Virus record (IMG/VR): IMGVR_UViG_3300025767_000089 | Location: 1-29,888 of that record | Length of the DNA stretch: 29,888 bases | From: a virus | Strand: one strand, 5' to 3' | In this document: in pieces, positions 356-29,888 of the stretch | Layout of the letters: every line of letters begins with the position of its first letter | How positions within the stretch are numbered: the first letter of the stretch is position 1 | The notes under the pieces: model-generated | Database searches by the model: none | What the model was told of the DNA's origin: nothing | The model's input: the letters and a program-made list of their open reading frames with translations, nothing else | Translations under genes and position numbers: made by a program

Positions 356-1426
356 TTATGCTTTTTTAGGTTGTTCTTCCTTAGTTACATCAATTAGAGT
401 TTCAATAATTGCAATATAAGCTAAATACTTAGCTATTGTTGCAGTCCATACAATAACAGTACCTGCAAATGGTATTGTGTGAAGCGATGCTTTAAGTAGT
501 TTCTTTCCGACATCTTTCACCTCCATTTCTGTGATAACACCGATAATAGTCGCTAACGCAACAAATTTATATGGTCCCGGTGCACCTGCAACTTCTGTTG
601 CCCATACTGAAAACTTCTCTAGTGAATTACCTACAAAGTCTTTGACCTTATTTTTTACTTTATATAATAAGCTAAATGGAGGAATCTTATTTAACTTAGC
701 TGCGATTGTAGATACAAACGGTATTTTTACACCACCAGCTTCATTAAGCGTAGAAAAATCTAATTCACCTGATAGTACAGCTTCATTAATAGACTTGTAT
801 AGTCCAAGCTCCATACCGTATGGAGAAAAGCTTTCATTAGTATCTGAATCTTTGGCCGCCTTTTGCATTGCTTGTGCCATTTCTTTGTGAAAGCCACTTA
901 AAACCCAAGCTTTAAATGATTTTAGCATTTTAGTTGCATTTACAATCTCACTTGCTAATAAACTTTTATCAGTAGTACTTGCAATAGCATCTTTAATCTC
1001 AGGAGCTTTAGCCTTTCCAGCTTTAAGAGCCATTGCATAGACCTTATCATAAGCTGTTTTACATGCTTTAGCAATATTTTGTACAACAAGCTTAATTACT
1101 TTACCAACATCACCACCAATTTTGATGATCATTTGTTGTGTATCTGTTAGAGCTTGTTTACCTTTTTCTTTGGCAACCGCAACTGCTTTATCAAACTTTT
1201 CTTTAGCCTTTTGAATTAAGTTTTCTTCAATCAATGCATCATCAATAGACATTAAGTCTTCTAATAACATGTCATCAAAAAGACCGGCATCTACAAGTGC
1301 AATAGCCTCGTTGATTACTGGTTTAACTTCTTCAAATTGATTAAAAATGTTAATGTACATTGATCTCTGTTCAGCAATGACTTGAGATCTAGTTGCATAT
1401 TCTGTAAATGATAATAATGGTTGCAT
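356..1426 (-). CDS. Putative capsid-targeted protein with hydrophobic C terminus
   Basis: This 356-residue protein begins MQPLLSFTEYATRSQVIAEQ. That is a short amphipathic leader ending in I-A-E, the same I/L-x-E pattern cut by the T4 prohead protease gp21 in internal proteins. The middle (about residues 70-200) is a lysine/alanine-rich helical stretch. The C-terminal 70 residues contain two hydrophobic segments (around 293-306 and 320-348) that could enter a membrane. A packaged protein that inserts into the host membrane on delivery would fit, but that is inference. It follows the 96-residue gene with a 14-base gap and has no clear Shine-Dalgarno site. I recognise no enzyme motif. The gene call is sure; the role is not. 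Confidence 0.85.
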   Translation of the reverse strand: MQPLLSFTEYATRSQVIAEQRSMYINIFNQFEEVKPVINEAIALVDAGLFDDMLLEDLMSIDDALIEENLIQKAKEKFDKAVAVAKEKGKQALTDTQQMIIKIGGDVGKVIKLVVQNIAKACKTAYDKVYAMALKAGKAKAPEIKDAIASTTDKSLLASEIVNATKMLKSFKAWVLSGFHKEMAQAMQKAAKDSDTNESFSPYGMELGLYKSINEAVLSGELDFSTLNEAGGVKIPFVSTIAAKLNKIPPFSLLYKVKNKVKDFVGNSLEKFSVWATEVAGAPGPYKFVALATIIGVITEMEVKDVGKKLLKASLHTIPFAGTVIVWTATIAKYLAYIAIIETLIDVTKEEQPKKA

Positions 1427-1440
1427 AGTTGTATTATATA

Positions 1441-1731
1441 TTATCTGCCTTCTCTCGCATCATCAAATGCAATCATAAAGTCTTCGCCGTCCATTCTATA
1501 ATGTGCAACAATGTCTGCTAAATGATCATTCATTGCTGGATTAGAATCTTCTAGATCTTCTCCTGTGATTTCTTTATAGTTCTTAACAATAAAATCTGCA
1601 AGCGATTGTTCAGTTGGCGTTGGACCATATTCCTTTTTAATAGCCTTTAGAAAACCTCTTAGAGTTTTCATATTTTCATTTAAAGACTCACTTGTATTTA
1701 CAAAGTCTTCAAATAGTCTTACATGTTTCAT
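1441..1731 (-). CDS. Small putative capsid-targeted internal protein (96 aa)
   Basis: The N terminus MKHVRLFEDFVNTSESLNE matches the leader shared by this operon (M-K-x-V-R/K-L-F-E-x-F), and L17-N18-E19 is a candidate gp21-type cleavage site. The rest is a small, acidic, helical domain (residues 20-96) without a motif I can name. The ATG at 1731 follows the TAA of the previous gene by two bases (TAACTATG), which suggests translational coupling. The leader DNA is almost identical to that of the next gene upstream, pointing to duplication of the leader. It is probably packaged in the head and delivered to the host; this rests only on the leader and the neighbours. Confidence 0.85.
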   Translation of the reverse strand: MKHVRLFEDFVNTSESLNENMKTLRGFLKAIKKEYGPTPTEQSLADFIVKNYKEITGEDLEDSNPAMNDHLADIVAHYRMDGEDFMIAFDDAREGR

Positions 1732-1733
1732 AG

Positions 1734-1982
1734 TTATTTCTTGTATTTTTGTACAATACGTTTTAGTTTTGTATCATCTCCTTTAAGAGCAGTCGTTAAG
1801 TCTTGTTTTAGACGATCATTAAACTTAAGATCTTTAATTAGTTTCTTAGAATCAATTTTATTATCGTCAATAAAGTCTTGTACTTTATCTTGGCCTGACA
1901 TACCTGTCATTCTATGGATAGCATATGCATCAGTAGAAACCGCTTCATTTGCAAAGGCTTCAAATAGTTTTACATGTTTCAT
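1734..1982 (-). CDS. Small putative capsid-targeted internal protein (82 aa)
   Basis: This 82-residue product begins MKHVKLFEAFANEAVSTD, the operon's shared leader. The likely processing point is F-A-N-E before A14, which fits the x-x-E pattern but not strict I/L-x-E. The mature part is lysine- and aspartate-rich and helical (residues 24-82), with a basic C terminus ending in KKYKK, so nucleic-acid contact is possible. I recognise no family. The ATG at 1982 comes two bases after the TAA of the ligase-like gene. At DNA level, the 32 bases around the start differ from those of the 96-residue gene at only two positions. Confidence 0.83.
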   Translation of the reverse strand: MKHVKLFEAFANEAVSTDAYAIHRMTGMSGQDKVQDFIDDNKIDSKKLIKDLKFNDRLKQDLTTALKGDDTKLKRIVQKYKK

Positions 1983-1984
1983 AA

Positions 1985-3295
1985 TTATCTACCGTACTTA
2001 ATGATACCCATTAGCTGATTAATTGCAGCGAAAGTACCAGTAAGTTTATATATTTTACCATTATATTTGAACACCAGGCCTTCAGTTGGTATGATTGACT
2101 CAATACCTCCGATTCTTTCAAGTCTTGCAAGTTCAGCTTCGACTTTTTCGATCTGATCAATCGCTCCAGTCTTCTTGATTTTAGAAGCTTCAGTTCTAAT
2201 TTGATTATGTAGTCTTTGCATCTCAGCATCTGGAGAAGCTGCCACAAAATTAGAAGCATTCATTAAAACAACTGAACCAAATTCTAGGAATAGATCTTCA
2301 AATGGTCTAATGTTTTCTTTGTATTTAACGCCTGATTTCTTATCAAATGCTTTAACCGCTTCCATGCCTTCTTTACCAACGACATTTGTCATTTCTCTAA
2401 AGTTCATAAAAGACTTATTGCTAAATGCCCATCTTTGTAAAAGACCTTCTTTAGCATCTTGTGCAATATTAGGGAATGTTTTATCAATCTCTTCTCTCCA
2501 CCACATTTCATGATATTTAGAAACCTCATCAGAACCTTTAAGATTGTACCTGCTTTGTAGATCATCAATCTTTTTCATAAAGTAAGGAAGCTTATCATCA
2601 AATTTTACATCCTTTCTAAGTTTTAACACTTGTGGTGGAATAATATTGAATACTTTACCAGCTCTTGCATTTACCTTATCTAAGAGGTTTGCAATTTCTT
2701 TAGCCGATCTAGGGCCCATATCACCTGTAATATTACCATTGCCATCAGTCTCTTTGATACCGTGGAATTGAATAATATCTCTATCGTAATTGATTACGTT
2801 AGGATTCTTTGAGTAGATAAGCTCCATGTTCATGAAGTTCTTACCGTCGTTAAAGTATTTTTCTTGATCTTGAGCACTAAGCTTTGTTAGAGATCTAGAT
2901 AAATCTTGAGCCGCAAATGTAAATGTATCTCTTACCATTTCAGATGGATGATCTTTAAACATTTGTGTAATTTGATCTAGATTAATTGGATCCTTAAGCT
3001 GCGTTTTATTTCTAGCAAAAAAAGCTTGACCATCTTTTACTGTAGCAAATACATTTTGACCATCGGTCTTTTCAGTTGCTTCTTCTTCAAAGTTCATTTC
3101 ACCTTGAAGTCCAGCTGTGATAAACTTTCTAAAGTCATCAAACGTAAGATCTTTATCGTCGAACGGGTGCATCATGTGACCCGCTGCACCACCTTCTATA
3201 ACAAGTTGAGAATCTCTCCATTCATTTAGATCACGGTGTGCCCCTTCAAGTGCCCTTTCAAGCAAAAATTCATTAAAAGAAACAAGTAATTTCAT
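1985..3295 (-). CDS. Capsid-targeted nucleotidyltransferase of the RNA/DNA ligase type
   Basis: This 436-residue protein carries the core signature of covalent nucleotidyltransferases. Motif I is E75-K76-T-D-G, with K76 the expected AMP-accepting lysine. It is followed by an FFARNK stretch with R95, then an E158 motif III (NMELIY), motif IV E404-G-L-V-F-K409 and a motif V-like K416-L-T-G. About 245 mostly helical residues sit between motifs III and IV, which is long for an RNA ligase. The first 13 residues, MKLLVSFNEFLLE, resemble the leader of the other head-internal proteins, with L-L-E as a cleavage site. Related proteins occur in marine T4-type phages, to my knowledge without a tested function. 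A role in sealing RNA or DNA ends soon after delivery is inference. It shares one base with the upstream gene (TAATG). Confidence 0.85.
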   Translation of the reverse strand: MKLLVSFNEFLLERALEGAHRDLNEWRDSQLVIEGGAAGHMMHPFDDKDLTFDDFRKFITAGLQGEMNFEEEATEKTDGQNVFATVKDGQAFFARNKTQLKDPINLDQITQMFKDHPSEMVRDTFTFAAQDLSRSLTKLSAQDQEKYFNDGKNFMNMELIYSKNPNVINYDRDIIQFHGIKETDGNGNITGDMGPRSAKEIANLLDKVNARAGKVFNIIPPQVLKLRKDVKFDDKLPYFMKKIDDLQSRYNLKGSDEVSKYHEMWWREEIDKTFPNIAQDAKEGLLQRWAFSNKSFMNFREMTNVVGKEGMEAVKAFDKKSGVKYKENIRPFEDLFLEFGSVVLMNASNFVAASPDAEMQRLHNQIRTEASKIKKTGAIDQIEKVEAELARLERIGGIESIIPTEGLVFKYNGKIYKLTGTFAAINQLMGIIKYGR

Positions 3296-3759
3296 TATCT
3301 AAACTTTTTAACTTGTCTTTCGATTTCTTTTCTAACTTCTGCAATAATACCAGGAGCTCTAAATGAACCTCCGATATCATTCGCATCAAATTCAGCTGAA
3401 GCTAAAATCTCTTCCATCTGCTCCTTTACTCTTTTAACTAACGCAGCTCTTCTTTCGTCTTCGTCGTCTGAAATAGTACCGTCAGCTTTAGCTTCAGTAA
3501 CATCTATACCTTCAACAAAAAGTGTTTGACCGCCTTTGTCTTCAACATGTACAGTTGCTTTAGGGTATTCTTTCTTTAATTGATTAAATGCAGCAGGAAC
3601 TATTTGAGGAGTTCCAACTAATTCTTGTTTAACTACTTTACCATTTTCAATTACAACAAGAGTTACCGGGTAACTTCCTTTCTTTGCAGCGTTATGAATC
3701 TTAGATAGTTTAGCTTCATCAATATCGTGAAAGCTTTCGTATAATCTTACTTTTTTCAT
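3295..3759 (-). CDS. Putative capsid-targeted internal protein (154 aa)
   Basis: It begins MKKVRLYESFHDIDEAKLSK, and I13-D14-E15 is a good gp21-type cleavage site. The mature protein has a compact alpha/beta-looking domain (about residues 28-88: a VTLVVIENGKVVKQ strand pair, then a helix, then ATVHVEDKGG), an acidic linker (TISDDEDERR) and a basic helical tail ending QVKKFR. I recall similar small domains in marine phage internal proteins but cannot name a function. Its start is 10 bases after the TAA of the 102-residue gene. Its stop overlaps the ATG of the ligase-like gene by one base, so the two are probably co-translated. Confidence 0.85.
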   Translation of the reverse strand: MKKVRLYESFHDIDEAKLSKIHNAAKKGSYPVTLVVIENGKVVKQELVGTPQIVPAAFNQLKKEYPKATVHVEDKGGQTLFVEGIDVTEAKADGTISDDEDERRAALVKRVKEQMEEILASAEFDANDIGGSFRAPGIIAEVRKEIERQVKKFR

Positions 3760-3769
3760 AGTGTTTATA

Positions 3770-4078
3770 TTAAAAGAACATAGCGTTCCAAGTAATACCT
3801 ATAGTCGCTTCTGTTTCTCCTTTTTTTGGTTTTTTATTGTTGTATTCGCTTTCAGTTTCTTTGGTAATTGCAACCCATTTTCCACCCTTCTTTTTTACAT
3901 CAACTAAAACACTTCTATTAGTTGAAGAGCTATTATCAGAGAAATCTTGACCAATAGCATCTTGAAGATCTTTAACCTTTGAAGGGTCTTGATCCTTCAT
4001 AGTATATGCTAGAGCTTTCTGATCTGAAGAGCTCATTGCTTCATTAGTAAAGTCTTCGAATAGTTTTACCTTTCTCAT
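3770..4078 (-). CDS. Small putative capsid-targeted internal protein (102 aa)
   Basis: The N terminus MRKVKLFEDFTNEAMSSS matches the shared leader, with T-N-E before A14 as the likely cut point. The remainder has a helical part (residues 20-48), a serine/asparagine-rich turn and a basic strand-rich half (VLVDVKKKGGKWVAITK), then a KKPKKGE segment and a hydrophobic end. No family is recognised. It sits 12 bases after the stop of the 106/101-residue gene, with an A-rich leader (AATAATAATACA) and no Shine-Dalgarno sequence. Packaging in the head is inferred from the leader peptide only. Confidence 0.83.
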   Translation of the reverse strand: MRKVKLFEDFTNEAMSSSDQKALAYTMKDQDPSKVKDLQDAIGQDFSDNSSSTNRSVLVDVKKKGGKWVAITKETESEYNNKKPKKGETEATIGITWNAMFF

Positions 4079-4090
4079 TGTATTATTATT

Positions 4091-4396
4091 TTATTTTGAC
4101 CAAGGGTGATTTCTTTTAACCATGTCGAACGCATTAATTAAACCTAAGACATCTCTATCTTTTTCTGAGTGATAAACTAAACCTTCATCTTTAAAGTATT
4201 TCCAAAAAGATTCACCAGAGCCTTTGCGGTGACCATACTCAACATCGTTCTTCTTGTCGTATGTAACTACATTATCTTTGTGAAGCTTCTTAAAAGCGTC
4301 TACAAACTCTCTGTATTCATAACCTATTAGTTCATTGTGAGTATTAAACACAGAACCTTCAGTAATAAATTCGTTAAGTGGTCTTATATGTTTCAT
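4091..4396 (-). CDS. Small putative capsid-targeted internal protein (101 aa)
   Basis: I take ATG at 4396 as the start, giving MKHIRPLNEFITEGSVFN. This is the shared leader with I11-T12-E13 before G14, close to the T4 internal-protein pattern. A longer reading from a TTG at 4411 would add five residues in front of this leader and reach into the terminator tail, so I reject it. The body (residues 19-101) is rich in tyrosine, lysine and aspartate and helical, with no motif I know. It is the first gene after an intrinsic terminator that ends only about a dozen bases before its start codon. It must therefore be expressed by read-through or from a promoter I cannot see. Confidence 0.82.
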   Translation of the reverse strand: MKHIRPLNEFITEGSVFNTHNELIGYEYREFVDAFKKLHKDNVVTYDKKNDVEYGHRKGSGESFWKYFKDEGLVYHSEKDRDVLGLINAFDMVKRNHPWSK

Positions 4397-4409
4397 ATGG
4401 CTAATATAC

Positions 4410-4440
4410 AAAAAAAGAAAGACCTGGAAAAATCCAGGTC
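4410..4440 (-). terminator. Rho-independent terminator (bidirectional)
   Basis: An 8-base-pair stem (GACCTGGA with TCCAGGTC, 4421-4440) closes a four-base loop. On the minus strand it is followed by the run TTTCTTTTTTT (4420-4410). On the plus strand the stem is followed by AACTTTTTT, so it could also stop the opposite direction. It lies 15 bases after the stop of the 472-residue gene and just before the next gene, inside the head-internal operon. Confidence 0.88.
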
Positions 4441-4455
4441 AACTTTTTTATAAAT

Positions 4456-5874
4456 TTATTTAAGTTTTTTAGAGGCTAGATCTTTATCCCTCTTAGCTAC
4501 ATTATCTAAGTAAGAACCGTCTCCCCAGAATTTAACAACTAGTTCAGTCTGAGTAGTTGAGTGCATTCCTGGTTTGTAAACTGCTATATCTTTTAGTTTT
4601 TTATTAGAATCAATCTCTTTCTTCATGAAGTCAAGTGCTTGTGCTTCGCTTCTAAATTTGTTTAAATGAGAAACGCCGTCGCTATAAACAACTTCGTAGT
4701 TTTCGTTAAGATTTACAGACTCAAACGCTGGAACTAATTGAGAGTTGTTATACACATCAACCATATACCATTTACCATCTCTTTCATCAAATAGATAAAC
4801 ATATTCTGCACCATTTGCATCAGCGTCTTTAATATATTTTCTAATATTATTAACTTTACCCTTTAGTGGTTTTAAGTCATTTGGTCCACCATAAAAATTC
4901 ATTTTATCAACGTTAAGCTCTAAACCAGAGTTATCACCCTTGCTTATAACAGTATCTACGTTATCTCCTTTTTTGTAACCTTTTTTAATTAGAGAAAGCA
5001 TATGCTCTGGGTATGAATCATAATGAGTGTATACCGATGCAATATCACCTGATTTATAGATCTTACCAAATTGACCTCTTGTTCCTTCGTTAATTACTGT
5101 TTCGATTTTAACTGATTCGTTAAAAGAAGTATTAAACGCATTCATTAATTGTTCAGCAACTTTAGTTTGACCAATTGAATCTAAGTACATTGCAGTGCCT
5201 TCAACAATTGCTATTCCATTATAATTAGCTGCGTGAGTAATTTCAGAAATACTATTTTGAATCATTTCAGTTAGTTTACCAACTGAAACTTTAATGATTG
5301 CATTATTTAATTCAGCAACCTTAACTTCAACTGGGAAAAGTCTACCTTTCATTTTACCTGCAGTTGCTGGAACCTCTCTCGAGAAGTTAGCATCTTCCAT
5401 TGCAAGTGAATATAGCTTCTTAATTGCACCGATGTGATGTATTGCAGGAACGCCTACTGCGTTTTTACCTAAAGCCGGATGTGCTTCAAAGAATTTAGCG
5501 TATTTGTTCATCACTTTCTTTGCATCTCTTTTACCAGTGACTACAACTGCTTCAGAAACTTCTTCTACTTCTGTAGATTCATCTTTCTTATCTTTCTTAT
5601 CTTTGTACTTATACTTCTTATAAAGCTCGTCATAATCAGCATCGTCCTTTTCGTGATCTGAAATAGCCTCGTTTTCAGCGTTAAGTTCTTTTAAAAATTT
5701 AGCTTGATCTTCTTCAGATAGTTCAGAAATTTTAGAAACGTTATACTTAGCTAAAAGTTCATTATATTCAGATACTGAAGCTTCTCTTTTAGTTGCCATT
5801 TCTTTTTGTGCTTCCTCTTCTCTTAGTTGATTTTGTAGCTGAGAGAAAGACTTAAAGTTATGAATCTTTTCCAT
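4456..5874 (-). CDS. Putative capsid-targeted polyprotein-like internal protein
   Basis: This 472-residue protein starts MEKIHNFKSFSQLQNQLRE, a leader-like peptide with L17-R18-E19. A coiled-coil region (20-85) and a lysine/acidic linker (about 86-108) follow. Then comes a helical domain (113-250), a domain starting after I261-N-E263 that contains VYTHYDSYPEH (281-291), and a last domain after L389-N-E391. The second domain resembles a family of small stand-alone phage proteins with a CHWDGYPEH-type motif (from memory, moderate confidence). Two internal I/L-x-E sites at domain borders, each preceded by an F-E/N-S stretch like the leader, suggest the prohead protease could release separate mature pieces. 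A scaffold/core role is an alternative. A terminator follows the gene, and a candidate late promoter precedes it. Confidence 0.85.
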   Translation of the reverse strand: MEKIHNFKSFSQLQNQLREEEAQKEMATKREASVSEYNELLAKYNVSKISELSEEDQAKFLKELNAENEAISDHEKDDADYDELYKKYKYKDKKDKKDESTEVEEVSEAVVVTGKRDAKKVMNKYAKFFEAHPALGKNAVGVPAIHHIGAIKKLYSLAMEDANFSREVPATAGKMKGRLFPVEVKVAELNNAIIKVSVGKLTEMIQNSISEITHAANYNGIAIVEGTAMYLDSIGQTKVAEQLMNAFNTSFNESVKIETVINEGTRGQFGKIYKSGDIASVYTHYDSYPEHMLSLIKKGYKKGDNVDTVISKGDNSGLELNVDKMNFYGGPNDLKPLKGKVNNIRKYIKDADANGAEYVYLFDERDGKWYMVDVYNNSQLVPAFESVNLNENYEVVYSDGVSHLNKFRSEAQALDFMKKEIDSNKKLKDIAVYKPGMHSTTQTELVVKFWGDGSYLDNVAKRDKDLASKKLK

Positions 5875-5889
5875 GTTATTGGATTATTT

Positions 5890-5924
5890 TATTTTTATAG
5901 TATAATACCTTGTTTTTATATATC
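5890..5924 (-). promoter_or_regulatory. Candidate promoter before the 472-residue gene
   Basis: Reading the minus strand, GATATATAA (5924-5916, including the uvsW stop codon) is followed by TATAAAAATA (5899-5890), then 15 bases to the ATG at 5874. The second box is close to the T4 late promoter TATAAATA. The first is one of four exact copies of this 9-mer at gene leaders in the window. It marks the switch from the recombination genes to the head-internal genes, where a change of timing is expected. Not tested. Confidence 0.4.
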
Positions 5925-7430
5925 TCCATCAAAACTAACTTTTTTAATCTTATACTTAAACTTTTCTTGACGGTATATTTTTTGTCTGGCTTTGCCATGG
6001 CGATATAAATAGTTTTCCCAATCATCGAATCTAATATCATCTACAAAGTCTATAATGTTGACTGAATCCTTAGACTCATGCTGCCTTAAACCACGACCAA
6101 TTGACTGGCGAATAATAACTTCAGATTTGAATGATTCTGTAAAGAATATGTTGTGAATCTTCTTAATAGAGATACCAGTTGAGAAGGTACCATAAGAGGC
6201 TACAATAACGACTTCATCACCAGCTTCCATTTTCTTTTTGTATTCTTCTCTAATATCTTTATCAGTTCCACCGTCAACATAATATACTTTTTTGTCAGAT
6301 CTTTGTCTTAACATTTCGTACAACTTTTTACCATGTTCAATTCTATGGAAAAGCACTAGAGAGTTCTTAGGTACTTTAGCAATAATCTTAGTTATAAAGT
6401 TTATTCTACCAGTTGAATTGATAACATAATTTTGTTCTAATGAGAATACATCTTTAGATTCATATTTGTTTGTTGCTAGTTCCATGAAAGCTTGCTTTGA
6501 AGCCTCAGGCGCATAGCTCATTTCAATAACTCTAACATTACAGCCTGCAATATGCCCTTCTTTTTGTAAGAAGTTTGCTTTAACCTCAGTGATTAGAGGT
6601 CCAGTTTGGCTCATTAGTGTTAATTTATCAAGTGAGTTCTCTTTTGGAATAGTACCAGAAAGACCGTATCTATACTTTGCATTTCTACATTTCTGCAAAA
6701 TGGTCTTAATCGAGTTTGATTTAGCTTTGTGAGTTTCATCTACAATTACAGCCTCAAAATCATCAAAGAATTCTTTTGGTTTCTTAACCAGCGATTGATA
6801 AGTTCCAATTACAATATTTCTATTTGTCTTAATCTTTTGACCAGAATAGATTTGTTGAATCATCATCTTGACTCTGTTCTCATGATTATATTCACCAAAG
6901 TCTTCAGTTGCTTGAACAACTAAAGAAACATTAGGTACAATAAAAAGAATCTTCTTGGCCTTTTCTTTTTCTAACATGTATGCAACTGTTAGAAACGATA
7001 TTAGTGTTTTACCAGCTGATGTTGCAAGTTCAGATAAAGATCTTCTAAATTTAAGAATGTTAAACGCAGCTTCAATTTGGTAATCTCTAGGAGTAATTCC
7101 ATCAGGGTGTCCATCAAAAAAGTCCATAGCCCATGATTCAAATGATTCAGCTGAAATATCTTTATCAAATATTCTAGTGACACCATTGATTTTAATATCG
7201 AAACGATACTGCTTACATATTTTAGTAACTTCTTGCCATAACCCAGCTGGAATCCATTTGTCATCCTTAACATATGAAACATAACCGTCCCATATACCCT
7301 TCTTAACTAATGGATTAAATCTCCAACTCTCAATTCTTCGAGTTAGAGAAATATTCAACTGTTCTAGTTCAAGTTCAGTAGCATCATCAATTCTTAAAAA
7401 TTGATTGTCTTCTGTTAACGTTAGCTCCAT
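5916..7430 (-). CDS. uvsW: UvsW-type superfamily 2 DNA helicase
   Basis: The 504-residue length is essentially that of T4 UvsW. Superfamily 2 motifs are all visible. They include a Q-motif-like R-D-Y-Q (115-118), Walker A A-T-S-A-G-K-T (136-142), motif Ia IVPNVSL (164-170), motif II D231-E-T-H, motif III S258-G-T and motif VI Q442-S-I-G-R-G-L-R. In T4, UvsW unwinds branched DNA and R-loops, drives branch migration and helps shift replication from origin-dependent to recombination-dependent initiation. The N-terminal 110 residues correspond to the substrate-binding domain. It follows the UvsY-like gene after 29 bases, keeping the T4 partnership although the gene order differs. No frameshift or missing motif is seen. 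Confidence 0.95.
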   Translation of the reverse strand: MELTLTEDNQFLRIDDATELELEQLNISLTRRIESWRFNPLVKKGIWDGYVSYVKDDKWIPAGLWQEVTKICKQYRFDIKINGVTRIFDKDISAESFESWAMDFFDGHPDGITPRDYQIEAAFNILKFRRSLSELATSAGKTLISFLTVAYMLEKEKAKKILFIVPNVSLVVQATEDFGEYNHENRVKMMIQQIYSGQKIKTNRNIVIGTYQSLVKKPKEFFDDFEAVIVDETHKAKSNSIKTILQKCRNAKYRYGLSGTIPKENSLDKLTLMSQTGPLITEVKANFLQKEGHIAGCNVRVIEMSYAPEASKQAFMELATNKYESKDVFSLEQNYVINSTGRINFITKIIAKVPKNSLVLFHRIEHGKKLYEMLRQRSDKKVYYVDGGTDKDIREEYKKKMEAGDEVVIVASYGTFSTGISIKKIHNIFFTESFKSEVIIRQSIGRGLRQHESKDSVNIIDFVDDIRFDDWENYLYRHGKARQKIYRQEKFKYKIKKVSFDGDI

Positions 7431-11086: not shown

Positions 11087-11455
11087 TTAGATACGTTTAC
11101 CAAGCGCAGCACCTAAAGCGGCACCAACAAGTCTTGAAGTTAATAGATCGTGCATTACACCTTTTTCAATACCTAATACTTTAGCAACAATTTTACCAAC
11201 TGATTTACCAAGTGCAAAGCCAGTAAGTCCACCAATAATAGAACCTAGAATACCTTCATTAGTAATTTCTGAGTTAAATGCATTTAGGTCATATGAACCA
11301 TCTTCTAGTTTATATTCTTCTAAGAATGCATCGACAGCTTCATCAATTTTTTGTTCAAGCTCTTCGTTCCACTCTTGTTCAAGTGATTCGTTAATTGCCT
11401 GAATATCAGCTTCAGTTACGTTTTGTTCGTTTAAGTAGTCAATAAATGTTTTCAT
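11087..11455 (-). CDS. Putative capsid-targeted glycine-zipper protein
   Basis: The N terminus MKTFIDYLNEQNVTEAD is strikingly close to the T4 internal-protein leader MKTYQEFIAEA, with L8-N-E10 as the cleavage site. An acidic helical region (14-66) is followed by a glycine-zipper region: GILGSIIGGLTGFALGKSVG at 68-87, then, after a short break, VGAALGAALGKRI at the C terminus. Glycine zippers of this kind pack in membranes. The simplest reading is a protein packed into the head and inserted into a membrane on DNA delivery, but this is inference. It lies between a tail-tube-like gene and the RuvC-like gene, 5 kb away from the main group with the same leader. Confidence 0.85.
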   Translation of the reverse strand: MKTFIDYLNEQNVTEADIQAINESLEQEWNEELEQKIDEAVDAFLEEYKLEDGSYDLNAFNSEITNEGILGSIIGGLTGFALGKSVGKIVAKVLGIEKGVMHDLLTSRLVGAALGAALGKRI

Positions 11456-14105: not shown

Positions 14106-14864
14106 TTAAAATTGAAGCCATTTAGGTGAGTAACCAAAAACAACACCGACAAACGGAGTTGCTCTAACTGAACCATCAACTGGATAGATTCCATAACCTA
14201 TTCCAAAGTTCATATTCCACCTACTCTTCTTCTTATATGTATTCAACTCATTATTGATAAGATCGATACCTTCGATTTTAATATCATCAAATGGGTATTT
14301 TGTGCTTATTCTCATTCTATTAACACCGTTCTCTTTTTCAAGCGCTGCTAGTAGTGAGATTGTTTGGTAGATTGATAGCTTGCCAGTAATCTGATTACTA
14401 TCAATTAAACCATTAAGAGTTACTACTCTTGTGTTATTATCACCAAAGTCTGCTGAATCTTTAAACATAAACGTTGAATCAGCATTAATAGTTGATGAAA
14501 TTAAAAGACTATCCTTAAGTTTGATTTCAGAAGATAATAACAAGTTTACACCTTCAAGGTCTTTATTAAGGTTAAGTGCCTTTCTATATTTTTTAAGAAG
14601 CTTTTCATTCTGTACTGCTAATTGTTCAGCAGTAGAAACATATGTTTTAATCTCAGCTTCTAAATAGCCGTTAGCATTTCTGTAAATCTCAACAGAATCG
14701 TGAGCCGCTTCGTAGTTAGCTCTTTCATTCTCAACTTGAACCTCAAGAACTTTAATATCCTCTCTAAGCGCTGAGTTTGAAGAACACTGTCCTAATAGTA
14801 CAAAAGCCAAAGCGGCAATTACTATAAAAGGAATCCAGTCTTTATTTATATTAATATTAATCAT
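14106..14864 (-). CDS. Spanin-like membrane protein with coiled coil
   Basis: This 252-residue protein has an N-terminal membrane anchor (about residues 11-28, PFIVIAALAFVLLGQCSS), a long periplasmic-type coiled coil (about 30-125) and a C-terminal strand-rich end (WNMNFGIGYGIYP ... GVVFGYSPKWLQF) typical of outer-membrane-facing beta hairpins. This layout resembles proteins of Bacteroidota phages that look like single-protein spanins, which join inner and outer membranes at lysis. The LLGQC motif is not a proper lipobox because Gln precedes Cys, so lipid anchoring is unlikely. Finding it inside the tail module is odd, and a membrane-spanning tail or entry role cannot be excluded. It overlaps the collar-fibre gene by one base. 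Confidence 0.65.
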   Translation of the reverse strand: MINININKDWIPFIVIAALAFVLLGQCSSNSALREDIKVLEVQVENERANYEAAHDSVEIYRNANGYLEAEIKTYVSTAEQLAVQNEKLLKKYRKALNLNKDLEGVNLLLSSEIKLKDSLLISSTINADSTFMFKDSADFGDNNTRVVTLNGLIDSNQITGKLSIYQTISLLAALEKENGVNRMRISTKYPFDDIKIEGIDLINNELNTYKKKSRWNMNFGIGYGIYPVDGSVRATPFVGVVFGYSPKWLQF

Positions 14865-16108
14865 TAGTCATGCTCTAAATTATCAGCTCCTAAATAAATC
14901 ATATAACCAACTGTAGTTGCAAGCGGTGTGATCGCCACATCTTTAACTTGATTAAATCCACCATCTTCTCCAGTTTCAATACCAACACCCGCGTTATAAT
15001 TCATTATACTTTCACCAGTTTGTATTGCCTGAGATGCATACATCGGAGCTGAAACAGTATGTTTATGATCAGGAACCGAAATATTAAAGCTTGAAGTAGC
15101 AGATCCAGATTCACGATCAGCTGTAGCAGATGGTGCAGAACTAGAACCTGCATTTTGAATATCCCATCCCATAGGAAATCTACCTCTCATATCTGGAGTA
15201 ATGTAATCCGGATAACCGACACCAGACCATGTAGCACCCCAACAGTAATACCAACCAGCCCAGTCACCAATACCTTTACCGGCTTGTTTGCCAGTACCAG
15301 CTGACCAGCCTAGAACCTTTGAACCATTATTAAGTACAAATGCAGGTACCATAACCATTGTACCAATAGGCACAACACTAGCCTCACCCCATTCGAAAGC
15401 ACCGTTTGAATTAGTAGCCATAATCACTTTACCAGTTGGATCAACGACATTAGGATCATTAAATTCAACATTTCCATTAAACTCAACCGTATTACCTGAA
15501 TTGAAATTAACATCAGTGTCAATTAAAGAACCATCTTTATTAAAATCTATAAAACTAGATCCATTAAAGTTTAAGTCTAATCCTTTACCATTAAACCCAT
15601 AAACCACATCAGAACCTACCGCAGAACTTAAAAAATCTAAAGTTTTAGCACTACCATTGTCTTTAAAAACAACATCAATGTAATTAGAGTCATTACCGTT
15701 AGTATCGAATCTGATAACTTTACCTAAATAGGATTCACTTACAAATTTAATGCTAGAAGCACTATATGGTGCTGGCGAATTAATACTGGTAGCAGTTAGA
15801 TCACCAATAACAATATTAGAAGGTCTGCCACCCTCTGTTTTAGTAAAGATAGTTCCAGAATATGTCGAAGATGCTAATGCATCGCCAACAAAGAAATCAG
15901 TGTAATCTCCAGGGTCACCTTTAGGACCAATAGGACCTTGAGCACCTGTTGCACCTGTTGCACCAGTTCCACCGCTTGCACCTTTAGCACCCGTTGCACC
16001 AATTGGACCACCTCCATTTGCTAGAATTTGGTCAAAATTGTAATTAATTTTATCGATCTGCTGTGCTTGTGAATCACCGTCAAAGATCTCTTTAATGTTA
16101 ATAGCCAT
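14864..16108 (-). CDS. Short tail fibre with collagen-like and tail-collar domains
   Basis: The N terminus (IKEIFDGDSQAQQIDKINYN) is a typical phage fibre attachment segment. About eleven Gly-X-Y triplets follow (G34 to G67), a collagen-like trimer rod, then beta-rich spacer repeats (F-N-G-N-V-E-F style, 170-220). The C-terminal tail-collar domain has P-I-G-T-M (247-251), W-Y-Y-C-W-G, then D306-M-R-G-R-F-P-M-G-W and H348-K-H. The collar domain is found in T4 gp12, the short tail fibre that anchors the phage to the cell surface, where His pairs bind metal. Function in receptor contact is likely. Whether it is the true gp12 counterpart or another fibre is open. Confidence 0.85.
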   Translation of the reverse strand: MAINIKEIFDGDSQAQQIDKINYNFDQILANGGGPIGATGAKGASGGTGATGATGAQGPIGPKGDPGDYTDFFVGDALASSTYSGTIFTKTEGGRPSNIVIGDLTATSINSPAPYSASSIKFVSESYLGKVIRFDTNGNDSNYIDVVFKDNGSAKTLDFLSSAVGSDVVYGFNGKGLDLNFNGSSFIDFNKDGSLIDTDVNFNSGNTVEFNGNVEFNDPNVVDPTGKVIMATNSNGAFEWGEASVVPIGTMVMVPAFVLNNGSKVLGWSAGTGKQAGKGIGDWAGWYYCWGATWSGVGYPDYITPDMRGRFPMGWDIQNAGSSSAPSATADRESGSATSSFNISVPDHKHTVSAPMYASQAIQTGESIMNYNAGVGIETGEDGGFNQVKDVAITPLATTVGYMIYLGADNLEHD

Positions 16109-27475: not shown

Positions 27476-29888
27476 TTAATATGATCTTAAATTTAATGTT
27501 AAACCACTAGTACCTGAAGTACCTGAAGTAACGCTAGTCCCTGAAGTACCTGATGTACCACTAGTTCCTGAAGCCCCTGATGTACCGCTAGTGCCTGAAG
27601 CCCCTGATGTTCCACTAGTCCCTGAAATTATAATAGGATCTAAATTAGGCCTTACTGTTGGACCATTCGTCCCAATATTACCATTATTTGAAAACGTTTT
27701 AATAGTAAATGCATTTTTAGTAACAGTGTTTGAATTACCATTAATATCAGTAATTTTTAAAGTTACTGTATAATCACCTAGATGTTCAAATAAGTATGTA
27801 AGTATATTTCTCCTAGACTTAATTGAATCAACTGACCTAGATATGTTTACAACATCCCATTCGTATGCTGTTTTACCAGGTATTTTAGAATTATCTGGTG
27901 AAAATGTCATATGTGTTAATTTTTCAACCTCAACATGATCTTTAGATATTCTTACGTCATTGTATGTTGGATTATATGCTTTATAGTTAGACATTCCATT
28001 AATTAAACCAGAGCCATTTACAATGCTTACTTCTTCAAAATCATATGTTCTTGAATAGTTTTTACCAACCGCAATTATACCTAAACATACATCAACAATA
28101 CCATCATTATCAGTATCTTCTAGTATGGCATTATAATTAAATTTAGATATTATAGGATTTGTTGAATTGTTTAATGCATCTCTAACATCTTTCCAATCTT
28201 GAATTGTTGCATTAACATCTAACTCACTTACAATAGTTTCATATCCAACGTACATTTGATTATCGTTGTAATCATAATGCATTATTTTAAGATCTGAATT
28301 AATATTAGCACTTCTTATAACAAATGATGCACTTACATCAGCACCTACTCTAGTTGAATCCCACCAAGTTCTAGAACCATTGTTCCAATTATGGTTTTTC
28401 AAGTTTCTCCAATAATATGGCCCTGTAGTTTCAGAATAGCCTGTTGTAGAAGTAGAATCTGCAAATCTTTTAACCATTGATGCATTTACACCATCACTAG
28501 TATCATATAAATAGTTATTGCGATCTAACGTATGGTATAATGTAGCAATTTCATGATCTACTGTATCGGTATTTTGTTGCGGGAAATCCCAATCACCACC
28601 TAAGTTTTTCCATCTAGTAGATGTACCGCCCCATAGATTTTCACTATAATCGTTAAGCCATTTATAGACTGAATAAAACTCAACTGGTTTCATTTTAACT
28701 GTGATTGCATCAGGGTATCTTAAAACCATCACGTTGTTAAATAGATCTACTTGTTCAAATTTAACAGAGTATGTGCCTTCATACGGTAAAGCAATTGCAA
28801 CCCTTCTATAAGTATCTACATTACCGATTAAAGTAGCTGAGAAGTTTTTAGGGCCAGTAATATACCATCTAAGTTCATAGATATCTTGCTTCCACCAATT
28901 ATCAAATGTAACTTCAGCTTGACCAGCATCTAACCACGTAAATTGTGCATCGTCCCATGTTTCATTGAAAGACGTACACTCTAGCATAATTGGAGCTCCG
29001 ATTCTAGAATCAGTATCATCTGATCTAAATGTATTTCTATCAATGTCGTAATATGTTTGGTAGAATGTTTCAACATCTGAATACAAATCTATGATATCTT
29101 GATCTGATAGATTATCAAAGCTTTGAGATTTACCTTCTAATATGTCTGAAACTTTTTCTAAATCTTCAATATAAATATTGTCTTGATGAATATTAATGCT
29201 AGCCTCTGTCCCTGCAGTTATAAGACTGATTGGGTTTTGACTAGTCCATATGTTAGTGTTATACGAAGAATAGAAATCGGCTTCACCAATGATGTCTATG
29301 ATTCTAGCATGCAGTGGTAAATACTCTTTCTGTAATTTGTTCTTAAGACCATATAACTTAATGAGTACCTCATCAGGTGTAAAGTCAAATATCTCTTCAA
29401 CTTGAGGTGTGTCCCATTCATCAAACTCACCAGTTGGTTCGTTTAATTTATAAAATAGACCAAATCTAGAAGTCTTCTTATATGACGAAGAAGGTAATAG
29501 AGTTTCTCTCTTTTTAGCTGCGAAGCCATCGCTATTAAATGGTACTTCTAAAGCCTTCATCTTACCAAACATTGGTGATCTATCATCGATCATTAACCAA
29601 TACTCTTTAAGGGTTAAGTTGTTATAGCCAAAGAATTTAATGGCATTAATAAGAGCTTTGTATGTACCGACAAATGGTTTAATATTTGCAAGTTCTAATA
29701 AAAGTTCTTTACGTTTTCTGTTAATAAGTTGCCAATCAGTACCTAATTCATTAATATCATGATCTTTAAATAGGAATTGATCTTTAGTTGATAGACTTGT
29801 ACCGAAGTTAGATAAAAGAACTGCTAGTCTTTCGTCTTCTCCCACAGTCTCACCATAAACATAGATATTAGCAACGAGCTTATCATCA
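27476..29888 (-). CDS. Large tail protein with PKD-like domain and GTS repeat tail, N terminus missing
   Basis: The frame is open through the right edge. The GTG at 29845 that could serve as a start is preceded in frame by sense codons (…DDKLVANIYVYGET), so the gene continues beyond the window and at least 803 residues are seen here. The N-terminal part (NIKPFVGTYKALINAIKFFG) looks like a baseplate or fibre-base domain. A PKD-like beta domain lies near the end (SPDNSKIPGKTAYEWD ... GDYTVTLKITDINGNSN), followed by a 40-residue run of G-T/A-S triplets and a short tail. Likely a tail-tip or fibre component facing the host surface. I cannot match it to one T4 gene. Confidence 0.8.
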   Translation of the reverse strand, partial: DDKLVANIYVYGETVGEDERLAVLLSNFGTSLSTKDQFLFKDHDINELGTDWQLINRKRKELLLELANIKPFVGTYKALINAIKFFGYNNLTLKEYWLMIDDRSPMFGKMKALEVPFNSDGFAAKKRETLLPSSSYKKTSRFGLFYKLNEPTGEFDEWDTPQVEEIFDFTPDEVLIKLYGLKNKLQKEYLPLHARIIDIIGEADFYSSYNTNIWTSQNPISLITAGTEASINIHQDNIYIEDLEKVSDILEGKSQSFDNLSDQDIIDLYSDVETFYQTYYDIDRNTFRSDDTDSRIGAPIMLECTSFNETWDDAQFTWLDAGQAEVTFDNWWKQDIYELRWYITGPKNFSATLIGNVDTYRRVAIALPYEGTYSVKFEQVDLFNNVMVLRYPDAITVKMKPVEFYSVYKWLNDYSENLWGGTSTRWKNLGGDWDFPQQNTDTVDHEIATLYHTLDRNNYLYDTSDGVNASMVKRFADSTSTTGYSETTGPYYWRNLKNHNWNNGSRTWWDSTRVGADVSASFVIRSANINSDLKIMHYDYNDNQMYVGYETIVSELDVNATIQDWKDVRDALNNSTNPIISKFNYNAILEDTDNDGIVDVCLGIIAVGKNYSRTYDFEEVSIVNGSGLINGMSNYKAYNPTYNDVRISKDHVEVEKLTHMTFSPDNSKIPGKTAYEWDVVNISRSVDSIKSRRNILTYLFEHLGDYTVTLKITDINGNSNTVTKNAFTIKTFSNNGNIGTNGPTVRPNLDPIIISGTSGTSGASGTSGTSGASGTSGTSGTSGTSVTSGTSGTSGLTLNLRSY
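27503..27622 (-). repeat. GTS-triplet coding repeat (9-bp unit)
   Basis: Thirteen consecutive Gly-Thr/Ala-Ser triplets (one with Val in place of Gly) are encoded by a 9-base unit whose codons vary mainly at third positions. Such repeats are common as flexible or trimer rods in marine phage tail proteins, and they change length easily by slippage. Confidence 0.85.

What the first reader, a model, noticed from the sequence alone, without database searches (positions are those of the whole stretch)
356..5874. Operon of eight proteins with a shared capsid-targeting-like leader: a candidate injected effector set
Eight consecutive products start with variants of M-K-x-[VI]-[KR]-L-[FY]-E-x-F, and a ninth is at 11087-11455. 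This is the layout of T4 internal proteins (MKTYQEFIAE then A), which are sorted into the prohead and cut by gp21 after I/L-x-E. A strict I/L-x-E lies within the first 19 residues in seven of the nine (for example S-L-N-E, D-I-D-E, F-I-T-E, V-I-A-E, Y-L-N-E). The bodies differ completely, as expected for a modular cargo. T4 IPI is an anti-restriction protein, so the others may be early anti-defence or takeover factors. The leader reading and the cargo idea are inference from pattern and context.
Basis: partly seen in the sequence, partly recalled or inferred. Interest (0 to 1): 0.88.

Follow-up and report, generated by a model that had tools for sequence, protein, structure and literature searches.

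The report
Phage head cargo with shared tag
This stretch of a T4-like phage encodes a run of unrelated proteins that share the same short front tag, most likely a ticket that sends them into the phage head, is cut off there, and lets them be injected with the DNA; in related phages the same tag sits on proteins known to switch off bacterial immunity.

Summary
The shared leader is real. Of the eight operon products, five carry it strongly, one (the 436-aa protein) moderately, and two (472 and 356 aa) only weakly. Relatives of this uncultured T4-like phage carry the leader (consensus MKH[IV]KLFEQF[IV]NE, then A/S/K/G) on at least 167 unrelated bodies. Four results support a T4-type capsid-targeting sequence. 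(1) Glu13 is conserved in 71 of 87 leaders chosen without looking at that position. (2) Relatives encode a gp21-type (S77) protease and a gp23 capsid protein. (3) In five of five head clusters checked, a short leader-like protein lies just upstream of the protease, where T4 has core proteins gp67/gp68. (4) Leader-bearing proteins include a Tad3 Thoeris inhibitor, whose homology to solved Tad3 begins at an internal SINE|G site in both genomes, and Acb1/LigT-like 2H enzymes. Several products, two of them in this window, look like strings of modules joined at [ILV]-x-E sites. The best-conserved window product resembles an RNA ligase and may repair cleaved RNA. Packaging, cutting and injection are inferred; no virion data exist. 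The principle is known from T4 IPI-III; the scale, the cargo and the polyprotein layout appear new.

The parts
4456..5874 (-). 472-aa product W1: weak leader (MEKIHNFKSF), charged N-terminal part, conserved module (residues 264-391) and C-terminal module
5086..5097 (-). Predicted internal cut site V-I-N-E|G (W1 residues 260-263) just before the phrog_1987 module; aligned relatives keep [ILV]-x-E|[GA]TR there
4702..5085 (-). phrog_1987 module of W1, well-folded prediction (pLDDT 89), no informative solved-structure match
4091..4396 (-). W2, 101 aa, leader MKHIRPLNEFITE|G; homologues in 24 held loci
3770..4078 (-). W3, 102 aa, leader MRKVKLFEDFTNE|A; orphan body
3295..3759 (-). W4, 154 aa, leader MKKVRLYESFHDIDE|A; two modules
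3493..3501 (-). Predicted internal cut site V-T-E|A (W4 residues 87-89) at the junction of two modules; the second module lies behind A-V-T-E|A after a different module in L018
1985..3295 (-). W5, 436 aa, leader MKLLVSFNEFLLE, RNA-ligase-like covalent nucleotidyltransferase; conserved in all 80 fetched relatives
3194..3295 (-). Predicted removable N-terminal region of W5 (residues 1-34), ending in an [IVL]-x-E|GGA site kept in 36 of 36 aligned relatives; low-confidence, largely unfolded in the model
3059..3070 (-). Nucleotidyltransferase motif I K-T-D-G (W5 residues 76-79), invariant
1734..1982 (-). W6, 82 aa, leader MKHVKLFEAFANE|A
1441..1731 (-). W7, 96 aa, leader MKHVRLFEDF, first I/L-x-E beyond the leader is S-L-N-E19|N, the layout of T4 ipI
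356..1426 (-). W8, 356 aa, weak leader MQPLLSFTEY with V-I-A-E19|Q; further I-N-E/L-N-E sites at residues 40, 215 and 229; no relative found
11087..11455 (-). W9, 122 aa, leader-like MKTFIDYLNE; conserved in 77 held loci; glycine-rich hydrophobic C-terminus

Best explanation
The leader is a capsid-targeting sequence of the T4 internal-protein type. It docks each product into the prohead core. The S77 prohead protease then cuts after the Glu of the leader, and at further [ILV]-x-E sites between modules. The freed proteins stay in the head with the DNA and are injected at infection, where they counter host defences or take over the host. Shown here: the leader, its conserved Glu, its spread over unrelated bodies, its presence beside the protease gene, and its presence on Tad3 and Acb1/2H-type proteins in relatives. 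Inferred: packaging, cutting, injection, and the function of the window's own cargo. For the window's best-conserved product, W5, the most likely role is an RNA-ligase-like enzyme that reseals RNA cut by host nucleases.
For: Leader: Glu13 in 71 of 87 leaders selected only on residues 1-10; 58 of 66 independent body families have Glu13, 53 with [ILV]-x-E, against 1.6% at matched internal positions. At least 167 body families and 450 proteins in held loci, from a capped scan. Reversed-pattern control empty in all records. Codons vary between unrelated bodies, so the peptide is selected. Head link: S77 protease-scaffold fusion and gp23 in 9 of 16 related records; in five of five head clusters a short leader-like protein lies between the presumed portal gene and the protease; the protein next to gp23 is leader-like in some; the capsid protein has K-L-Y-E|[DE]-A at its N-terminal boundary. 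T4 ipII/ipIII start MKTYQEFIAE|A and ipI starts MKTFKEF with I-T-E19|A; the 76-residue mature IPI (PMC3012670) fits a cut at 19. Cargo: Tad3 behind the leader in two genomes (PF25185; PDB 9b7d, E 2.5e-35 and 4.2e-35), with Tad3 residue 1 falling on the Glu of an internal SINE|G site in both; Acb1/2H-type proteins with leader or leader-like starts in four genomes, two above the Acb1 cut-off; also zeta-toxin-like kinase, GNAT, ATP-grasp, cytidylyltransferase-like, Nudix and amidotransferase-like proteins. Modules: 10 of 14 shared modules keep an [ILVFM]-x-E site at the boundary, background 19%; [ILV]NE occurs 25 times in leader bodies, shuffles 9.0 +/- 3.1. Cargo genes come and go between fixed neighbours.
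Against: No virion proteomics exists for this clade in anything I could read. The window is a fragment without head genes, so its own protease is not seen. Head genes were found in only 9 of the 16 related records, the rest being fragments. W1 and W8 score at background for the leader. Only two leader families carry a protein known to inhibit a defence system, and the 2H proteins match the general 2H family (PF13563) slightly better than Acb1. [ILV]NE is also somewhat above shuffles in other proteins of these genomes (151 against 105). Two leader-bearing or leader-like AAA+ ATPases are not obvious cargo.
Confidence: 0.8

Rival explanations
1. The leader does send proteins into the prohead, but most cargo only helps build or fill the head (core, DNA condensation) and is degraded or left inside, with no role in the new host cell.
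For: A leader-like protein sits at the core-protein position beside the protease, and T4 core proteins are cut to fragments (PMC5694885). Most bodies have no known domain.
Against: Leader proteins include Tad3, Acb1/2H-type, kinase, GNAT, Nudix and RNA-ligase-like enzymes, which make little sense as filler. Gene content varies strongly between close relatives, unlike assembly genes.
Confidence: 0.1
2. The leader targets proteins elsewhere in the infected cell, for example to the membrane or a replication site, and Glu13 is conserved for binding, not for cutting.
For: Cutting and location were not observed. The leader is a short, probably helical peptide, as many docking peptides are (low confidence there).
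Against: Internal [ILV]-x-E sites at module boundaries, the register of Tad3 with the SINE|G site, placement in the head cluster and likeness to the T4 leaders are all explained by cutting and not by docking.
Confidence: 0.06
3. The products are ordinary paralogues that share a front end by descent, with diverged bodies, and the motif is a relic.
For: Some tandem genes are related, and some longer products share modules.
Against: At least 167 body families without detectable similarity carry it, including well-known unrelated folds. The first 13 residues stay constant while bodies differ, with varied codons.
Confidence: 0.02
4. The start-site likeness is chance or a composition effect of an AT-rich genome.
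For: Lys, Phe and Glu are common in AT-rich phage proteins (general knowledge).
Against: Reversed-pattern controls gave no match in any record while forward patterns matched in 15 of 16. Internal Met positions reach the score threshold in 0.15% of cases against 7% of ORF starts.
Confidence: 0.01

Closest known systems
Phage T4 internal proteins IPI, IPII, IPIII with capsid-targeting sequence and gp21 protease
   Same: Short N-terminal peptide shared by unrelated bodies, [ILV]-x-E cut-type site after about 10-19 residues, S77 protease in the genome, diverse anti-defence cargo. The IPI layout (site at 19) is seen in window W7 and W8.
   Different: Leader is 13 residues, three longer than MKTYQEFIAE (MKHxKLFExF against MKTYxEF); up to about twenty cargo genes per genome instead of three; enzymes and known defence inhibitors among them; several cargos joined as strings; protease and scaffold fused in one ORF.
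Phage P1 DarA/DarB/Hdf packaged antirestriction proteins
   Same: Head-associated proteins that protect the incoming DNA (PMC12810830, abstract).
   Different: A different, unrelated set of proteins; no shared short leader known to me (own knowledge, not tested).
SPN3US / phiKZ head and ejection proteins with propeptides
   Same: Head proteins cut by a prohead protease at short x-x-E motifs, with extra sites in propeptides (PMC5694885).
   Different: Propeptides mostly over 100 residues, in large ejection proteins, not a common 13-residue tag on many small bodies.
Polyvalent proteins injected by tailed phages and plasmids
   Same: Several effector domains in one polypeptide thought to be delivered on entry (PMC5512222, found, abstract only).
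   Different: Here the modules are separated by prohead-protease-type sites and carry a T4-type leader, so they are probably released inside the head.
Tad3 (type I Thoeris inhibitor; PDB 9b7d) and Acb1/2H phosphoesterases
   Same: Homologous domains occur behind the leader in relatives of the window.
   Different: T4 57B (Acb1) does not match the leader, and solved Tad3 has almost nothing before the homologous domain.

Membership tests
T4-type capsid-targeting sequence / internal protein | Short N-terminal peptide shared by otherwise unrelated proteins | tested here: met
   At least 167 body families; K2, E8, F10, E13 in 90% or more of 97 unrelated proteins
T4-type capsid-targeting sequence / internal protein | Prohead-protease-type [LI]-x-E site at or just after the leader | tested here: met
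   53 of 66 families have [ILV]-x-E at 11-13; window 7 of 9 by the strict I/L rule, the rest T-N-E or A-N-E
T4-type capsid-targeting sequence / internal protein | gp21-type S77 protease and gp23 capsid protein in the same phage | tested here: met
   9 of 16 related records, all above Pfam cut-off; not visible in the window itself, which is a fragment
T4-type capsid-targeting sequence / internal protein | Leader removed and protein present inside mature heads | not testable with these tools
   Needs virion mass spectrometry
T4-type capsid-targeting sequence / internal protein | Injected and active in the new host, as IPI is | not testable with these tools
   Tad3 and Acb1/2H homologues behind the leader are suggestive only
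T4-type capsid-targeting sequence / internal protein | Sequence match to the T4 leader itself | tested here: inconclusive
   MKTYQEFIAE|A and MKHVKLFEQFVNE|A share MK, an aromatic, F-[IV]-x-E but differ by three residues in length; too short for a homology score
Covalent nucleotidyltransferase / RNA ligase superfamily (window W5) | Motif I KxDG plus conserved motif III, IV and V residues | tested here: met
   K76, D78, G79, R95, E158, E405, G406, K417 invariant in 36 sequences
Covalent nucleotidyltransferase / RNA ligase superfamily (window W5) | Nucleotidyltransferase fold | tested here: inconclusive
   Predicted model: top 23 aligned chains are all RNA ligases, best Z 8.7, rmsd 4.5 over 189 residues; Foldseek best E 0.005; no Pfam or sequence match
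Tad3 (cargo in relatives G002 and G003, not in the window) | Sequence homology over the domain | tested here: met
   PF25185 E 2.9e-23 and 4.2e-20; PDB 9b7d E 2.5e-35 and 4.2e-35
Acb1 (cargo in relatives, not in the window) | Acb1 profile match with two HxT motifs | tested here: inconclusive
   Two of four over the Pfam cut-off, but PF13563 scores as well; HCT and HMT motifs present

The most novel reading that the evidence does not exclude
A widespread clade of T4-like phages carries a head-packaged arsenal of well over a hundred kinds of effector marked by one peptide tag. Part of it is made as polyproteins that the prohead protease cuts into separate effectors inside the head, including anti-Thoeris Tad3, 2H enzymes that destroy cyclic-nucleotide signals, and a packaged RNA ligase that mends host RNA. 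The tag itself then becomes a search handle for unknown anti-defence proteins.
Probability: 0.6. Interest if true: 0.92.

Novelty: new variant of a known kind. Interest (0 to 1): 0.82.

Why it matters
Most phage counter-defence genes have no recognisable sequence, so they are found one by one. If this tag marks injected cargo, each of the 167 or more body families becomes a candidate anti-defence or takeover protein that acts before any phage gene is expressed. It would also explain how a phage can block fast alarm systems such as Thoeris or CBASS at the moment of entry. The internal cut sites would add a way to pack several effectors as one chain. The prediction is sharp and cheap to test on any cultured relative.

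Tried and rejected
Pfam, PHROGs and NCBIfam gave no known function for the window's own products, except the phrog_1987 module of unknown function. Searches for relatives of W8 and of whole W1 in viral contigs found none; W1 modules were found in held loci instead. Fold search of the phrog_1987 module gave no solved-structure match and only uncharacterised viral proteins. T4 late-promoter motif: 6 hits against 6.2 expected, none just upstream of the operon, so timing stays open. The general [ILV]-x-E motif is not enriched in leader bodies (178 against 179 in shuffles); only the narrower [ILV]NE is. The leader pattern did not match T4, Tenacibaculum phage PTm1, Chryseobacterium phage MA9V-1, Sphingomonas phage PAU or Microcystis phage Mel-JY01, and matched once in LR756500, so the exact 13-residue form seems specific to this clade. 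Literature searches for prior description in this clade and for Tad3 papers found nothing in the held library, which is not proof of absence.
Full report
WHAT WAS CHECKED. The window is a 29,888-base virus record from IMG/VR. It carries T4-type genes on the minus strand: a UvsW-like helicase at 5916-7430, a primase, a gp32-like protein, a RuvC-like resolvase, a tail-tube protein and a tail-fibre protein. I call them W1 (4456-5874), W2 (4091-4396), W3 (3770-4078), W4 (3295-3759), W5 (1985-3295), W6 (1734-1982), W7 (1441-1731), W8 (356-1426) and W9 (11087-11455).

THE LEADER IS REAL. A scan with W5 found 97 related stretches; the best 80 were kept. I collected strict leaders from the window and these loci using a pattern on residues 1-10 only. 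Residue 13, which the pattern did not see, is Glu in 71 of 87; residue 12 is most often Asn and residue 11 Ile or Val. By the resulting matrix W2, W3, W4, W6 and W7 are strong, W5 moderate, W1 and W8 weak. A DNA pattern for the leader matched 15 of 16 long related records and its reversed control matched none; a second pattern including Glu13 gave 17 matches in one 256-kb record and none for its control. A wider, capped scan of viral contigs brought the total to 450 proteins and 167 body families without detectable similarity. Aligning 97 such proteins blindly leaves only M1 invariant and K2, E8, F10 and E13 in 90% or more. Unrelated bodies spell the leader with different codons, at most positions near the background rate, though Lys and Glu codons near the start are less varied; selection therefore acts on the peptide.

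IT LOOKS LIKE THE T4 CAPSID-TARGETING SEQUENCE. T4 ipII and ipIII start MKTYQEFIAE|A, and ipI starts MKTFKEF with its I-T-E at residue 19. A review states that mature IPI has 76 residues (PMC3012670), which fits a cut after residue 19 of 95. The window shows both layouts: a site at 13 (W2, W3, W6, also W5) or 15 (W4), and a site at 19 (W7, W8). Nine of 16 related records encode an S77 prohead protease and the same nine encode gp23; the protease is fused to a long acidic scaffold-like tail, as annotated in Tenacibaculum phage PTm1. In five of five head clusters examined, a short protein with a leader-like start (for example IKTFEQFI-E) lies between the presumed portal gene and the protease, where T4 has the core proteins gp67 and gp68. 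The gp23 of these phages keeps K-L-Y-E|[DE]-A at the boundary of its N-terminal part.

THE CARGO IN RELATIVES INCLUDES DEFENCE INHIBITORS. In G003 (256 kb) at least 20 leader proteins were found, many in one island near 189-200 kb. One is a Tad3 homologue, present also in G002. Both match the solved Tad3 chain 9b7d at E about 1e-35. Query residue 45 pairs with Tad3 residue 5 in G003, and 48 with 7 in G002, so Tad3 residue 1 falls on the Glu of an internal SINE|G site in each. Cutting there would yield a protein with the extent of free-standing Tad3. Alignment ends are uncertain by a few residues. 2H phosphoesterases of the Acb1/LigT kind sit behind a leader or leader-like start in G002, G003, G007 and G008; two pass the Acb1 cut-off. 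In T4, ipI lies next to 57B/acb1, though T4 Acb1 does not match this leader. Other leader proteins match zeta-toxin-like kinase, GNAT, ATP-grasp, DJ-1/amidotransferase-like, cytidylyltransferase-like, Nudix, HD, phosphoribosyltransferase and PAP2 families.

STRINGS OF MODULES. Where one body occurs directly behind a leader in one protein and internally in another, 10 of 14 pairs keep an [ILVFM]-x-E at the boundary, against 19% by chance. In W1 the phrog_1987 module begins right after V-I-N-E, and aligned homologues in relatives show [ILV]-x-E|[GA]TR there. In W4 the second module begins at V-T-E|A; in L018 the same module follows A-V-T-E|A after a different first module. [ILV]NE is 2.8 times as frequent in leader bodies as in shuffles, while the wider [ILV]-x-E is not enriched. 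I infer that the protease releases several effectors from one chain.

THE RNA-LIGASE-LIKE PRODUCT W5. It is the best-conserved member. In 36 relatives the residues KTDG (76-79), E158, E405 and K417 are invariant, and so is an [IVL]-x-E|GGA site at residue 34. In several relatives it has the full leader MKHIKLFE-EW. The model is confident from about residue 45 and poor before it; its 23 best structural matches are all RNA ligases, best Z 8.7, although Foldseek E-values are weak. In Microcystis phage Mel-JY01 the homologous domain follows I-I-A-E|GG behind a cytidylyltransferase-like domain and lies about 8 kb from a predicted prohead protease. I infer a packaged RNA-repair enzyme; its substrate is unknown.

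ISLAND DYNAMICS. Between UvsW-W1 and W5 the number of leader genes varies from none (L044) to several (L012), and W3 and W8 have no body homologue in held loci. This is how a cargo island would behave.

WHAT REMAINS OPEN. No step inside the virion or the cell has been seen. The window has no head genes. The functions of W1-W4 and W6-W8 are unknown. W9 is conserved and may be a core or membrane-active component. The principle, a targeting peptide on diverse defence proteins, is known from T-even phages (PMC3012670, PMC7697877); I found no earlier description in this clade, within a library that lacks many papers.

Noticed in passing
L083, L087 and other protease loci of relatives (G002-G006, G008-G010, G014): The S77 prohead protease is fused to a long acidic scaffold-like tail with repeated Y-x-x-[YH]-[VIL]-A-E units, which look like self-cleavage sites.
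   Followed up: partly
L216:44-1390 and L229:1064-2650: AAA+ ATPases with a leader or leader-like start (FTEFVNEA; MKKIYNFKEFVNE); not obvious cargo and possibly packaged motors.
   Followed up: no
L004:13168-16395, L009:13418-16642, L012:13758-16532: Products of about 900-1080 aa two genes downstream of the RNA-ligase-like gene start with a leader-like stretch (for example MFESFNDF followed by PLNE|G); probable very long cargo strings.
   Followed up: no
L206:9308-11227 (Microcystis phage Mel-JY01): Cytidylyltransferase-like domain fused ahead of the RNA-ligase-like domain with I-I-A-E|GG at the junction; the record annotates only the first domain.
   Followed up: partly
L339:17592-18411 (T4): In T4 the internal-protein gene ipI lies next to 57B/acb1, and T4 Acb1 itself starts MMEFKDFSTG, faintly like the ipI leader.
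   Followed up: no
window 11087-11455: W9 has a glycine-rich hydrophobic C-terminus, overlaps the RuvC-like gene by 26 bases and is conserved at about 60-80% identity in many of 77 loci; it may act at a membrane.
   Followed up: partly
window 27476-27700: The 789-aa product at 27476-29845 ends in a low-complexity G-T-S repeat, and the 414-aa product at 14864-16108 has collagen-like GXY repeats.
   Followed up: no
L165:17157-18878 (G008): A 574-aa product starting with a leader and a GNAT domain contains a second complete leader (LKHVKLFEQFVTE) in frame, as if two cargo genes had fused.
   Followed up: partly
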